43,649 nt of DNA from Actinomycetes bacterium (GCA_030426515.1 JAUHYM010000006.1:1-43649), one strand, 5' to 3'; numbered from the stretch's first letter, positions 35,452 to 43,649 are shown. Program-made: numbers and translations. The notes: generated from the sequence alone by a model not told the origin.

Positions 35452-38946
<3,495 letters not shown>

Positions 38947-39021
38947 GGGGATAACCTCCATGAGCCGGGCAGGCTCGGTTCCTTGTTGTCAGTGACTCGT
39001 CGTCAGGTGCGTTCGGCCCTC

Positions 39022-39060
39022 GTCCCCGAAGCCGGACGTCCGCACCGCGATCGCGGGGAC
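39022..39060 (-). other. Inverted-repeat-rich element in rpoB 5' leader
   Basis: gtccccg ... cggggac closing stem enclosing palindromes ggacgtcc and cgcgatcgcg. Confidence 0.5.
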
Positions 39061-39119
39061 GCACCGTGCACAGCCGACCACCATATGAAGGCAGGGGGAA
39101 TCCAAGAGCGCAAACAACA

Positions 39120-39148
39120 ACTATAGGCGCTTCGCCACGCCATGTCCA
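39120..39148 (-). promoter_or_regulatory. Housekeeping-sigma-like promoter for rpoBC
   Basis: Minus strand TGGACA (39148-39143), 17-nt spacer, TATAGT (39125-39120). Confidence 0.7.
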
Positions 39149-39281
39149 GCTGGATTCTTGACGACCCCTCACCCCTGAGGTATGAGTCCTCCCGGCGGCG
39201 CCGAATTCCGCCGCGCAGCAGCCCGGACGAACGCCGGGACGGATGCCGGACGAGGCGCAGCGCCCCGCCCGGCACCGACCG

Positions 39282-39596
39282 TCAGTGACCCGCGTTGCCG
39301 CGACAGGCCACCCCGGGGCGCTCGTCGCCCAGCGCGTCCTTCAGCCCGAGGCTGACGAACTGTCCGTAGCTCTGCACGCCGTGGTAGTCGTAGGCGACGG
39401 CATCGTCGTCATACCCCGGCGGGTTGCCTTCGACGTCGTCGGGCACGTCGCGTCCCGAGTAGGAGCAGGCGGACTTCCCCTTCTCCCCACCGGGTACGGC
39501 ACCGCCCTTCCCGTTGTACTCGCCGGCGCTCGCGGCACCGGCTCCTCCCACCACCAGGCCGAGCGCAAGCACGGCCCCGATCGCTGCACGCTTCAT
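39282..39596 (-). CDS. Small secreted protein (ACxYSG...QSYGQ...PGxACxxxxGH type)
   Basis: Signal peptide MKRAAIGAVLALGLVVGGAGAASA; mature ACSYSGRDVPDD...GVQSYGQFVSLGLKDALGDERPGVACRGNAGH*; ATG at 39605 also possible. Confidence 0.8.
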   Translation of the reverse strand: MKRAAIGAVLALGLVVGGAGAASAGEYNGKGGAVPGGEKGKSACSYSGRDVPDDVEGNPPGYDDDAVAYDYHGVQSYGQFVSLGLKDALGDERPGVACRGNAGH

Positions 39597-39869
39597 CGCG
39601 TACATCCCCTGTGTTCCCCCGGGCGACGGCGTCGTCGCCCGTCGCGGCTGGATCGCCACGGCTCGCACGCTACTCCGCTCCCGGGCCGCGCGGTATCCCA
39701 TCTCTCTGGGATGCCGGCGAGGGGTGGTGCGCGAGAGCGAACCCGAGGATGCTGTGGACAAGGGGGCATCCGACCGTTCAGGTATCACCGGGCACGGTCG
39801 GCTCCTCCTCCTCACGGGTGCAGCCGCGACGGCCACCCGGGGATCACGTGTGTCGGGCAGGGGGCGAGC

Positions 39870-42020
39870 ATGGGGGATGCGGCGACGCCGGCACCTGTCG
39901 TGCGACTGTCGGGCGCACTGTCGCTCACCGCGATCTCGGTCGAGGGCATCGACCGGCGCGCCGAGGCCCGACGCCTGGCCGTGCCGGTCGCGCGGCTCAT
40001 CTTCACGGTGACCGCCTCGGCCCTCGGTGACGGAGACTCGGTGCTCCGCCTGTCGTTCCCGCGGCCGGGCGAGCGGGCCCTGCTGCGCGTCGTCTGCCGC
40101 CGCGGCACGCGGGTCACGGTCCACCGCCTGCGGGTCGACGACCAGACGGTCACGGCCGACCTTCCGGCGATGACGACGGGCGAGATCGCCGTCCTCTCGC
40201 TCCTGCGCTTCCCGACCGTCATCGCGGCGGCCGCGTTCGGTCGCGTGCCCCTGCCGGGCGCCGGCCAGATGCCGCCGCGACTGCCCCTCCCCCGCCCGGA
40301 CCGGATCGGCGGTCTACGCTCGGCGCCGCCGCCGGGCGTCCCCGACGGCGATGGCCTGGAGATGCCTCGCTTCCTCGAGCCGCCCGAAGAGGCAGCACCC
40401 GCACCGGTCGAGATGGCTCCGCCGGAGGAGGCGTTCGAATCCGCACCCCCGCCGGTGCCCGTGCCCCCGGCGCCGCACACCGAGACGCCGCAGACACCTG
40501 TCCGTGAGCCCGCCCACATCGACGCCGAAGTGCCCGCGAGCATCCCGGTCGAGCGCGAGGTCCCGCTCGTCGTGCGCCTGTCTCGCGACCGGCTCGAGGC
40601 GACACCGGGCCGCGCGCGCGACGACGCCGTCATCCCGGTCGATCCGACGCGTCCGGTCATCGTGACGGTCGCCCTGCGCGGGATCCGCCTGGCCGAGGGC
40701 GCGCACCGCACGCGCCGCCTGCGCCTGCCGGACGCCGGGGCTGCGCCCGCGACGGCGACCTTCCGCCTGATCGGCGTGGATGCCGGCGAGGCCGACGTCT
40801 CGGTGATCGTGCGCCAGGAGCCGGTCGAGCTGCCGCTGGCGACGCTCCGGCTGCGACCGACCGTCACCGCGCAGGGTTCGGCGGACGCGGCGCCGCTGGT
40901 GGCCGCGACCGCGGCTTCGGCCCGCCCCGCGCAGGTCGCGGAGCTCCCGACGCTGCGCGTGGATGAGGAGCTGGCCGGCGGGCGGTCTGTGCTGCACATC
41001 GCGGCGGTGATCGGGCAGGAGCGTGCCGAAGGACGCGTCGAGATCGGCGACAAGGCAGCGTTCGTCGACCGCGTCTACGCGCGTCTGCAGGGCATCGCCT
41101 CTCGGGTGGAGGCGATCCGGGATGCCGAGACCCGCCGCGCCGAGACCGAGCGACTCGTCCGCCGGTACGGTCAGGCGCTCGCCGACAGCCTGCTGGGCCC
41201 AGACGTGCGCGCGCTGCTGTGGCGGCATCGCGCCGAGGTGACCTCACTGCTGCTGCAGACCTCCGCCGAGATCGACCTGCCGTGGGAGGTCGTGCACCTG
41301 CGCCCGCCGGAGGGCGAGGACGACGGGAGAACCCACTTCCTCGCCGACCTCGGCCTCCTGCGCTGGGTGTACGACACCGCGCGCCCACGGCGCATCGCCG
41401 TCCACAGCGCGGTGGCCCTCTGCCCGGAGTACGAGGACAAGAGCCTGCGCCTGGCCCGCACCGCCGAGGAGGTCGCCGCGCTGCGGACCCATCTCGCGGG
41501 CGACCCGGTCTCTCCGATCGGCGTGCCCGAGGTCCGCTCGTGCGTGCAGAACGGCTTCGATCTGCTCCACTTCGCCGGCCACGGCCGCTGGAGCGATGCC
41601 GAGCCCATCGGGCAGCAGCTGCTGCTGGCCGCCTTCTCCCCCGGCGCCGCCGAGGGCGTGTACGCCGACCGCGACGTCCGCGCCGATCTGACGACCGCCA
41701 GCCGCGCATCCCACGCCCCTCTGGTGTTCCTCAGCGCGTGCGACGTCGGCCGGCTGCGCTCCGGGGCCACCGGGACCGGCGGCTTCGCCGAGGCGTTCCT
41801 GCGCGGTGGCGCCGGCGCGTTCATCGGCTGCGGCTGGGCGGTGCGCGACGACGTCGCCTCGGAATTCGTCCGCGTGTTCTACGACGCCGCATTCGGTGCG
41901 GACCTCGACCTCGCCGCCGCCACGCGGCAGGCCCGCGATGCCGCCCGGCGCGCGGGCGACCTGAGCGGACTGGCCTATGCGGTCTTCGCCGATCCCCGTA
42001 CTCACCTGACCACGACCTGA
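39870..42020 (+). CDS. CHAT-domain protease with N-terminal beta-rich repeat regions
   Basis: ATG 39870 MGDAATPAPVVRLSGAL...; C-terminal CHAT signature DLLHFAGHGRW ... APLVFLSACDVGRL ... GGFAEAFLRGGAGAFIGCGWAVRD. Confidence 0.85.
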   Translation: MGDAATPAPVVRLSGALSLTAISVEGIDRRAEARRLAVPVARLIFTVTASALGDGDSVLRLSFPRPGERALLRVVCRRGTRVTVHRLRVDDQTVTADLPAMTTGEIAVLSLLRFPTVIAAAAFGRVPLPGAGQMPPRLPLPRPDRIGGLRSAPPPGVPDGDGLEMPRFLEPPEEAAPAPVEMAPPEEAFESAPPPVPVPPAPHTETPQTPVREPAHIDAEVPASIPVEREVPLVVRLSRDRLEATPGRARDDAVIPVDPTRPVIVTVALRGIRLAEGAHRTRRLRLPDAGAAPATATFRLIGVDAGEADVSVIVRQEPVELPLATLRLRPTVTAQGSADAAPLVAATAASARPAQVAELPTLRVDEELAGGRSVLHIAAVIGQERAEGRVEIGDKAAFVDRVYARLQGIASRVEAIRDAETRRAETERLVRRYGQALADSLLGPDVRALLWRHRAEVTSLLLQTSAEIDLPWEVVHLRPPEGEDDGRTHFLADLGLLRWVYDTARPRRIAVHSAVALCPEYEDKSLRLARTAEEVAALRTHLAGDPVSPIGVPEVRSCVQNGFDLLHFAGHGRWSDAEPIGQQLLLAAFSPGAAEGVYADRDVRADLTTASRASHAPLVFLSACDVGRLRSGATGTGGFAEAFLRGGAGAFIGCGWAVRDDVASEFVRVFYDAAFGADLDLAAATRQARDAARRAGDLSGLAYAVFADPRTHLTTT

Positions 42021-42036
42021 ACGACAGGAGATGACC

Positions 42037-43649
42037 ATGTCCGATGCCTCACTCACCGCCGAGCGCGGGTCGCACCTCACCCCGGCGCAGCTCGCCGCCC
42101 TCAAGCCGCACGTGATCAACACCGAAGACGGCGCGCTCGCCTCCCGCGGCCGCGCGCGTCCCGCCACGGTCGACGAGTTCGTGACCTCGGCGGCCGATGT
42201 GCGCAAGATCGTGCGCGAGCATCTGCCCGCGTTCATCGCCGAGCACCAGCCGGGCCCCGTGCCGGTCATGGTGTGGGCTCACGGCGGCCTCGTGTCGAAG
42301 GCCGCCGGGTTCGAGACCGCGCACACCCAGGTGCAGTGGTGGCGCGACAACGGCGTGTTCCCCCTCCACATGGTCTGGGAGACCGGCCTTCTCACGTCCG
42401 TCACCGATGCGGTCCGGCGCGCGTTGGGCTCCCGCGGCTTCACCGACTTCACCGACGGCCTCATCGAGACCGGCGCACGACTGCTGGGCGGTCGCCAGAT
42501 CTGGGAGGACATGAAGCTGGATGCCGCGGCGAACGCGCTCGACGACGGCGGCGCGACGGTGCTCGCGCGCGAGCTCGCGGCGTTCATGGCCGAGAACCCC
42601 GACGCCATCACTCTGCACGCGGTCGGACACAGCGCGGGGTCCATCTTCCACTCGCACTTCGTCCCGCGCGCGCTCGCCGAAGGCGTCCCCGAGTTCGAGA
42701 CCGTGTCGCTGCTGGCCCCCGCGGTGCGTCTGGACACCTTCGAGGCCACGCTGCTGCCCGCCGCACAGTCCGCGAAGATCCGCGACCTGTCGGTGTTCAC
42801 CATGACCGACCCGAAAGAGCGCGACGACAACGTGGCGGGCATCTACCGCAAGTCGCTGCTGTACCTCGTCTCGCGCGCGTTCGAGCCCGAGCGCGACGCG
42901 CAGATCCTCGGGATGGCCAAGCACCTGGATGCCAGCGCGCCCACGCGCGACTATCTGCGCGCCACCGACGATCGTCTGGTCCTCAGCCCGATCACCAACG
43001 GGCTTCGGCGCAGCAGCCTGGCGACCTCACACGGCGACTTCGACAACGACGGCCCCACGATGAACAGCGTCGCCCGCCGCGTCGCGGGACGCGACCGCAT
43101 CGAGGAGTACCCCACCGCGACGCGATCGGCACCGCCCGCCGACACGCTCGCACCCGCAACCGCACCGTGGCCGCCCGAGGCCACGACCGTCCCCGCGCCC
43201 GCCCGCGAACCCGCGCGTCGCGCCGTGTGCATCGGGGTGAACGCCTACCCCGAGCCCCAGGACCGTCTGGCCGGCTGCGTCCCCGACGCCGAGGCCTGGT
43301 CGCAGGCGCTGCGAGAGCGAGGCTTCGCGGTCGAGACGATGCGCGACGCCGAAGCGACGCGCGAGGCGATCCTCTCTCGTCTGCTCGACCTCGTCTCGAC
43401 CGCGGTGGCGGGCGACATCCTGGCCGTGCAGTTCTCCGGCCACGGCACACACGTGCCCGACCTGGACGGCGACGAGGTCGACAGCTTCGGCCCGCGCGAC
43501 GAGGCGATCTGCCCGGTGGATTTCCGCGAGGGCGGCCTCATCATCGACGACGACCTCGCCCTCATCTGGGACCTGATCCCCGAGGGCGTGTCGATGACCC
43601 TCTTCTTCGACTCGTGCCACTCAGGCACCGTCAGCAGGGGCGAGCCGAC
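42037..43649 (+). CDS. Alpha/beta-hydrolase fused to metacaspase-like peptidase C14 domain (3' end outside window)
   Basis: Manual translation of the open frame: MSDASLTAERGSHLTPAQL...VMVWAHGGLVSKAAGF...ITLHAVGHSAGSIFHSHF...LATSHGDFDND...RRAVCIGVNAYPEPQDRLAGCVPDAEAW...LAVQFSGHGTHVPDLDGDEVDSFGPRDEAICPVD...MTLFFDSCHSGTVSRGE; AGGAG 6 nt upstream of ATG 42037. Confidence 0.88.
   Translation, partial: MSDASLTAERGSHLTPAQLAALKPHVINTEDGALASRGRARPATVDEFVTSAADVRKIVREHLPAFIAEHQPGPVPVMVWAHGGLVSKAAGFETAHTQVQWWRDNGVFPLHMVWETGLLTSVTDAVRRALGSRGFTDFTDGLIETGARLLGGRQIWEDMKLDAAANALDDGGATVLARELAAFMAENPDAITLHAVGHSAGSIFHSHFVPRALAEGVPEFETVSLLAPAVRLDTFEATLLPAAQSAKIRDLSVFTMTDPKERDDNVAGIYRKSLLYLVSRAFEPERDAQILGMAKHLDASAPTRDYLRATDDRLVLSPITNGLRRSSLATSHGDFDNDGPTMNSVARRVAGRDRIEEYPTATRSAPPADTLAPATAPWPPEATTVPAPAREPARRAVCIGVNAYPEPQDRLAGCVPDAEAWSQALRERGFAVETMRDAEATREAILSRLLDLVSTAVAGDILAVQFSGHGTHVPDLDGDEVDSFGPRDEAICPVDFREGGLIIDDDLALIWDLIPEGVSMTLFFDSCHSGTVSRGEP

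What the first reader, a model, noticed from the sequence alone, without database searches (positions are those of the whole stretch)
39870..43649. Tandem CHAT protease + alpha/beta-hydrolase-metacaspase operon: candidate undescribed protease-based system
Two clan-CD (caspase-fold) proteases of different subfamilies are adjacent and probably co-translated. The CHAT gene stops at 42020 and the next start (42037) has its own AGGAG 6 nt upstream. Both retain apparent catalytic His/Cys motifs: CHAT LHFAGHG / LSACDVG, and metacaspase FSGHGTHVPDLDGDE / FFDSCHSG. Established knowledge: CHAT and caspase-like proteases act as effectors or activators in bacterial conflict and death systems, such as Csx29/Craspase and gasdermin-linked proteases. 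Inference: one protease could process the other, and the fused hydrolase could be an executioner or substrate. No gasdermin, NACHT/STAND or CRISPR gene is visible in the window, so this would not be a standard version of those systems.
Basis: partly seen in the sequence, partly recalled or inferred. Interest (0 to 1): 0.9.

Follow-up and report, generated by a model that had tools for sequence, protein, structure and literature searches.

The report
CHAT protease paired with hydrolase–metacaspase
Two neighbouring bacterial genes encode two different caspase-like proteases, one fused to a lipase-like enzyme; relatives show they are inherited as a unit and have twice become one protein, so they probably form a protease relay of a kind known only from CRISPR defences, whose real role is still untested.

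Summary
A DUF7363–CHAT protease (39870–42020 +) lies 16 nt before an alpha/beta-hydrolase–metacaspase gene (42037 to the window end, which is a contig end and cuts the gene inside the caspase domain). Both folds were confirmed by prediction: CHAT matches separase and Csx29 (Z 24, 22), the caspase part matches metacaspases (Z 28). The catalytic residues are invariant in relatives.

The pair is a real unit. In 295 same-genus genomes the same 19 carry both genes and none carries only one; all 19 are adjacent on the same strand. Elsewhere in Actinobacteria the two genes fused twice independently, in opposite orders.

In 46 of 80 loci sampled from many phyla the same hydrolase–caspase is partnered instead by an HExxH zinc-peptidase-like protein, sometimes with an added peptidoglycan-amidase domain. 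The constant part thus looks like an executioner and the variable protease like its regulator or activator.

The pair sits at an rpoB–pxpBC site that is often empty or holds DUF4062–STAND genes, which are optional.

Best reading: a non-CRISPR two-protease relay, a new variant of a known kind (cf. SAVED-CHAT cascade; hydrolase/caspase pairs of MoxR–vWA conflict systems). Cleavage, toxicity and phage defence are untested.

The parts
39870..42020 (+). DUF7363-CHAT protease gene, 716 aa: N-terminal beta-rich region (about 1-125), low-confidence proline-rich linker (about 129-207), DUF7363 beta-sandwich (219-328), helical stalk and CHAT domain (431-694). Catalytic H571 (codon 41580) and C624 (codon 41739)
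   Evidence: Pfam; model; fold matches; catalytic residues; start codon inferred (G+C pattern)
42037..43649 (+). Hydrolase-metacaspase gene, incomplete at the contig end. N-terminal alpha/beta-hydrolase-like domain (H82-GG; nucleophile S199 codon 42631; candidate acid D263; H332 codon 43030), linker with conserved Arg (about residue 363), metacaspase p20 (H469 codon 43441; C527 codon 43615); the rest of the caspase domain and the C-terminal helix lie beyond the contig end
42021..42036 (+). 16-nt intergenic gap with AGGAG ribosome-binding site; in relatives the gap is -11 to 78 nt, consistent with one transcript
   Evidence: Sequence; gaps
38962..39869 (.). rpoB-side flank of a variable chromosomal site (rpoB 35452-38961 on the - strand); holds a small putative secreted-protein gene on the - strand (39282-39605); no STAND remnant detected. 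In relatives the site lies between rpoB and pxpBC and is empty, holds STAND, CHAT-CASP, or both

Best explanation
The two genes form one functional module: a two-protease relay. The alpha/beta-hydrolase-metacaspase is the executioner, a dormant enzyme combining a lipase/esterase-like domain and a basic-residue-specific caspase domain. The DUF7363-CHAT protein is its dedicated regulator: on a signal sensed by its N-terminal beta domains it becomes active and cleaves or docks onto the executioner (for example in the linker between hydrolase and caspase), releasing both activities, which attack cellular proteins and probably membrane lipids, causing growth arrest or death under stress or infection. 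Shown: anatomy, folds, conserved catalytic residues, strict pairing, two fusions, partner replacement by an HExxH peptidase-like protein, gain/loss at one site. Inferred: direction of activation, cleavage site, hydrolase substrate, trigger and the death/defence outcome.
For: Folds: CHAT model of the window protein matches separase Z 24.3, Csx29 Z 22.0, SAVED-CHAT Z 18.5; caspase part of a full-length relative matches metacaspases Z 28. Catalytic H and C of both proteases invariant, and the hydrolase GHSAGS Ser invariant, over 44 diverse caspase proteins and 18 CHATs. Pairing: 19/295 genomes have both genes, 276 neither, 0 one (Fisher p 2.6e-30, not phylogeny-corrected); always same strand, gap -11 to 78 nt. 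Two fusions in different clades and opposite orders: L079 CHAT-CASP, motifs intact; L064 CASP-CHAT, motifs degraded. In 46/80 loci an HExxH peptidase-like protein holds the partner position; 17/44 caspase proteins carry an added Amidase_2: the constant part gains lytic domains, the partner is swapped. Nearly invariant Arg in the low-confidence interdomain linker; orthocaspases cleave after basic residues (PMC6426788). SAVED-CHAT acts through a cascade of proteolytic activity (PMC11229360).
Against: No experiment. Direction of activation is inferred from which partner is constant; the reverse is possible. The hydrolase fold rests on motifs and predicted topology; sequence search against solved structures gave only weak esterase hits. 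Not on phages or mobile plasmids in the collections searched, and the flanks are housekeeping genes, not a defence island. 10 of 80 homologues have no protease partner detected at the locus.
Confidence: 0.45

Rival explanations
1. Housekeeping or regulatory proteolysis: CHAT and caspase process specific cellular proteins (for example anti-sigma factors or envelope enzymes) in a stress or developmental response, with no cell death or defence role.
For: DdvA, a transmembrane anti-sigma factor with a CHAT-like fold, is among the closest structural matches (Z 21.2). Chromosomal location beside rpoB and pxpBC, no phage or mobile-plasmid copies.
Against: Patchy gain/loss (19 of 295 species; many empty sites) is unlike a core regulatory function; lytic-type domains (hydrolase, Amidase_2) are fused to the caspase.
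Confidence: 0.2
2. Three-component immune operon: the DUF4062-STAND ATPase senses invasion and switches on the CHAT-caspase pair, by direct assembly or through a nucleotide product of its TIR-like DUF4062 domain.
For: 13 of 18 complete same-genus loci have 1-2 DUF4062-STAND genes immediately upstream on the same strand; carriers are enriched for STAND (15/19 against 52/276, p 1e-7 without phylogenetic correction). DUF4062 domains are TIR-like NADases in an antiphage system (PMC13174449). Rousset et al. 2025 (cited there) report TIR signalling activating caspase-like immunity.
Against: The window, L035, L041, L046, L049 and L050 have the pair without adjacent STAND; STAND occurs without the pair at the same site in many genomes; the gap to CHAT is 122-206 nt; no STAND of this family lies next to the pair outside Microbacterium in the loci sampled. 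No STAND found in the window's incomplete genome.
Confidence: 0.12
3. Reverse or parallel order: the metacaspase is activated first (for example by calcium or autoprocessing) and cleaves CHAT, or the two proteases act side by side on different targets in one complex.
For: Metacaspases commonly autoprocess (general knowledge); CHAT has a long low-confidence linker (129-207) that could be cleaved.
Against: CHAT is absent from most loci that keep the hydrolase-caspase, so CHAT is unlikely to be the universal downstream target.
Confidence: 0.15
4. Coincidental neighbours: two unrelated proteases co-inherited at one chromosomal site.
For: All Microbacterium carriers that flank rpoB share one site, so their adjacency is not independent.
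Against: Same adjacency in Agromyces, Rhodococcus, Sinomonas, Nocardioides and Microbacteriaceae with other flanks; two independent fusions.
Confidence: 0.03

Closest known systems
SAVED-CHAT proteolytic cascade of type III-B CRISPR (Steens et al. 2024, as cited in PMC11229360; structure 8tl0)
   Same: A CHAT protease set beside a second caspase-type protease; CHAT fold matches (Z 18.5). That the second protease there is a caspase homologue (PCaspase) is from my own knowledge.
   Different: No SAVED domain and no CRISPR genes in the loci examined; the sensor would be DUF7363 plus another beta domain; the caspase is fused to a hydrolase.
Craspase / Csx29 TPR-CHAT (type III-E)
   Same: CHAT protease fold, Z 22.0 over 310 residues
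   Different: No TPR region, no Cas7-11, no Csx30; partner is a metacaspase
Alpha/beta-hydrolase with caspase pairings of VMAP MoxR-vWA conflict systems (Kaur et al. 2020, PMC7159879)
   Same: A caspase-superfamily peptidase always accompanied by an alpha/beta-hydrolase, proposed to operate together
   Different: Here the two are one polypeptide; no MoxR, vWA or VMAP gene in the L041 neighbourhood scanned; a second protease is the partner
Amidase_2-containing prokaryotic metacaspases (Asplund-Samuelsson et al. 2012, PMC3501461: Polaromonas, Nitrosococcus, Chitinophaga, Desulfobacterium)
   Same: Polaromonas members of the family found here carry the same Amidase_2 plus caspase architecture; the paper proposes a cell-death role
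   Different: I found no mention of the central hydrolase, the HExxH partner or the CHAT partner in the passages read; Actinobacterial members lack the amidase
Swarozyc / DUF4062 TIR-like NADases (PMC13174449)
   Same: STAND genes at the same site in relatives begin with DUF4062 (weak profile match to the KpSwz structure)
   Different: Absent from the window; optional; fused to STAND and TPR

Membership tests
CHAT peptidase (clan CD) | CHAT/separase-type fold with His-Cys dyad | tested here: met
   PF12770 2.8e-22; model vs separase Z 24.3, Csx29 Z 22.0; H571 and C624 invariant
Metacaspase (Peptidase C14) | Caspase p20 with GHG and DxCHSG dyad | tested here: met
   PF00656 3.7e-17 in the window; full-length relative vs metacaspases Z 26-28.6; H and C invariant in 44
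Metacaspase (Peptidase C14) | Intact p10 part in this gene | not testable with these tools
   The contig ends inside the caspase domain; relatives have it
Alpha/beta-hydrolase | Nucleophile elbow G-x-S-x-G and Ser-Asp-His order in an alpha/beta sheet | tested here: inconclusive
   GHSAGS between strand 194-201 and helix 204-217 in the L053 model, invariant Ser, Asp, His in order; only weak esterase or DUF900 sequence hits; domain not searched alone by structure
SAVED-CHAT cascade / type III CRISPR | SAVED domain on the CHAT protein | tested here: not met
   Pfam finds only DUF7363, CHAT and C25 on the CHAT protein
SAVED-CHAT cascade / type III CRISPR | CHAT cleaves and activates the caspase | not testable with these tools
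   Needs biochemistry
Craspase | TPR-CHAT with Cas7-11 and Csx30 | tested here: not met
   No TPR on the CHAT protein; flanks are rpoB, pxpBC and pxpA genes
VMAP MoxR-vWA ternary system | MoxR ATPase and vWA genes adjacent | tested here: not met
   None among the ten flanking proteins of the STAND-less relative L041; only one relative scanned in full
Bacterial gasdermin-protease system | Small gasdermin gene beside the protease | tested here: inconclusive
   In L041 one 193-aa gene without Pfam match lies upstream and its L035 homologue reads as a lipoprotein; no gasdermin-specific structural test was made
Swarozyc (DUF4062 NADase) | DUF4062 protein in the module | tested here: not met
   None in the window; none of this STAND family in the held genome

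The most novel reading that the evidence does not exclude
A widespread, undescribed non-CRISPR protease-relay family in bacteria: one conserved hydrolase-metacaspase executioner (sometimes with a peptidoglycan amidase) controlled by interchangeable activator proteases, either DUF7363-CHAT or an HExxH zinc peptidase, acting as a programmed-death or antiphage module.
Probability: 0.4. Interest if true: 0.78.

Novelty: new variant of a known kind. Interest (0 to 1): 0.58.

Why it matters
What bacterial metacaspases do, and what switches them on, is largely open. This family gives a dedicated, genetically inseparable partner protease, two natural fusion proteins, and a second partner type in other phyla. 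That makes a concrete bacterial caspase-activation cascade directly testable and would extend CHAT-to-caspase logic beyond CRISPR.

Tried and rejected
STAND as an obligate third component: rejected, because STAND often occurs without the pair and the pair without STAND. Mobile element: no plasmid match for CHAT, one large non-mobilizable cyanobacterial replicon for the caspase, no phage match. First automatic gene calls in high-GC loci put some genes on the wrong strand; redone with the caspase gene as seed. Loci first called as having no partner were rechecked in six frames, which recovered CHAT in L070 and L117 and HExxH genes, some broken, in L074, L096 and L106. DUF7363 in papers: none. 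DUF7363 across the class: only 3 of 394 sampled genomes above cut-off. Sequence search of the CHAT profile against solved structures: nothing at E up to 0.01, so the fold comparison was needed. Structural comparison listed no match for the N-terminal hydrolase domain, because the caspase domain fills the list; this is not evidence against the fold.

Full report
OBSERVATION. The window is a whole contig (C24, 43,649 bases) of a 2.52 Mb, 72.8%-complete genome. At 39870–42020 (+) there is a 716-aa protein with DUF7363 (residues 219–328, 1.5e-26) followed by a CHAT domain (431–694, 2.8e-22); at 42037 a second gene begins after a 16-nt gap containing AGGAG, and runs off the contig. Its visible part is an N-terminal region with alpha/beta-hydrolase motifs (HGG, GHSAGS, SHGDFDND) and the first half of a Peptidase_C14 domain (396–534, 3.7e-17). 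Codon-position G+C supports both genes and the 39870 start.

FOLDS. AlphaFold2 of the window CHAT protein (pLDDT 77) matches separase (Z 24.3), Csx29/TPR-CHAT (22.0), the CHAT-like anti-sigma factor DdvA (21.2) and SAVED-CHAT (18.5). A full-length relative of the second protein (L053, Microbacterium, pLDDT 85) matches plant and bacterial metacaspases at Z 26–28.6 over residues 391–672. Its N-terminal domain shows a strand–GHSAGS–helix elbow and invariant Ser, Asp and His in the order expected of an alpha/beta-hydrolase, but sequence searches give only weak esterase hits; I call it a probable hydrolase.

CONSERVATION AND PAIRING. In 295 genomes of the genus, 19 (the window's own included) carry the hydrolase–caspase protein over its full length (relatives 51–64% identical) and exactly the same 19 carry the DUF7363–CHAT protein; no genome has just one. 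In all 19 the two are adjacent, same strand, CHAT first, with gaps of -11 to 78 nt. The protease dyads and the hydrolase serine are invariant among 44 diverse caspase proteins and 18 CHATs.

WIDER FAMILY. A scan of 84,980 species genomes returned 146 relatives; the best 80 loci were annotated with a seeded gene caller of my own and six-frame profile searches. Partners: DUF7363–CHAT immediately upstream in 19 (Microbacterium, Agromyces, Rhodococcus, Sinomonas, Nocardioides, another Microbacteriaceae, Rathayibacter); fused with CHAT in 2; an HExxH protein of about 550–650 aa in 46 (Proteobacteria, Verrucomicrobia, Acidobacteria, Cryobacterium, Arthrobacter and others; HExxHA in 43 of the 44 called copies; weak thermolysin similarity only); an LCAT-like hydrolase–M17_N–CHAT protein in 2 Hymenobacter, and in Akkermansia a related protein with CHAT on the opposite strand (not scanned by Pfam); none detected in 10. 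Seventeen of 44 sampled caspase proteins have an N-terminal Amidase_2 domain. The tree (quick method) places the two fusions in different supported clades; they have opposite domain orders (L079 CHAT–CASP with intact motifs; L064 CASP–CHAT with FSGQGT and LNAFDIG, probably inactive). Independent fusion in both orders is strong evidence of joint function.

GENOMIC SITE. In Microbacterium the module usually lies between rpoB and pxpBC. Among 30 pxpBC loci, 17 have rpoB next to pxpBC with no such cassette (one keeps a 44-aa STAND remnant), 9 have STAND next to pxpBC, 2 have the caspase gene, and 2 were uninformative. Nine further STAND-carrying sites that were read in full hold 1–3 STAND genes between rpoB and pxpBC and no CHAT–CASP. 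DUF4062–NB-ARC–TPR STAND genes sit just upstream of CHAT in 13 of 18 relatives with complete loci, but are present in 67 of 295 genomes, mostly without the pair. So CHAT–CASP and STAND are separate cassettes sharing a gain/loss site; cooperation is possible, dependence is not shown.

MECHANISM. The constant component is the hydrolase–caspase, which also acquires a wall-degrading-type domain in Gram-negatives; the variable component is a second protease or protease-like protein. The simplest reading is executioner plus activator. A nearly invariant Arg in the low-confidence linker between hydrolase and caspase is a candidate processing site, since orthocaspases cut after basic residues (PMC6426788); whether CHAT or the caspase itself would cut there is unknown. 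The precedent is the type III SAVED-CHAT system, described as giving immunity by a cascade of proteolytic activity (PMC11229360). What is shown: anatomy, fold, conservation, linkage, fusion, partner replacement. What is inferred: cleavage, direction, trigger, hydrolase substrate, death or defence.

KNOWN VERSUS NEW. Hydrolase/caspase co-operation was noted in MoxR–vWA conflict systems (PMC7159879) and Amidase_2 metacaspases in 2012 (PMC3501461). I found no description of the DUF7363–CHAT plus hydrolase–metacaspase pair, nor of the HExxH alternative, in the held papers; most subscription papers are not held, so this is a limited negative. PADLOC recognises only a generic caspase. I rate it a new variant of a known kind.

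LIMITS. Co-occurrence statistics are not corrected for phylogeny. Gene starts are approximate. The window's own caspase gene is incomplete, so its p10 half is known only from relatives. Partner classes were assigned by profile similarity and position, not by expression data. The activity of the HExxH protein is assumed from its motif.

Noticed in passing
L001 (G000 contig C53) 22-3130: The same genome has another CHAT protein whose gene overlaps a following subtilase (Peptidase_S8) gene: a second tandem protease pair, CHAT plus subtilisin.
   Followed up: partly
L004 (G000 contig C199) 220-2057: A stand-alone caspase (Peptidase_C14) gene directly follows a putative membrane protein with a proline/threonine-rich tail, near a signal-peptidase-like gene on the opposite strand.
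   Followed up: no
L089:12280-14214 and homologues in 46 loci: HExxH (HEVTHALLDGLR ... HEAFADL) peptidase-like family of about 600 aa with no Pfam match above cut-off, the usual partner of hydrolase-caspases outside the CHAT-bearing Actinobacteria; one also lies about 6.6 kb from the CHAT-type pair in M. trichothecenolyticum (L118:18815-20725).
   Followed up: partly
L156-L164 and L167: The rpoB-pxpBC interval of Microbacterium is a variable site holding 0-3 DUF4062-STAND genes (related to the Swarozyc NADase domain), with a decayed 44-aa remnant in one genome.
   Followed up: yes
Cryobacterium loci, e.g. L073, 8 kb to 14 kb: Hydrolase-caspase flanked by a divergent HExxH gene, a second short caspase gene (about 280 aa) and a flotillin/SPFH-like gene.
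   Followed up: no
L064:8489-14269: CASP-CHAT fusion (1,927 aa) with a long N-terminal region and altered catalytic residues (FSGQGT, LNAFDIG): possible pseudo-protease version.
   Followed up: partly
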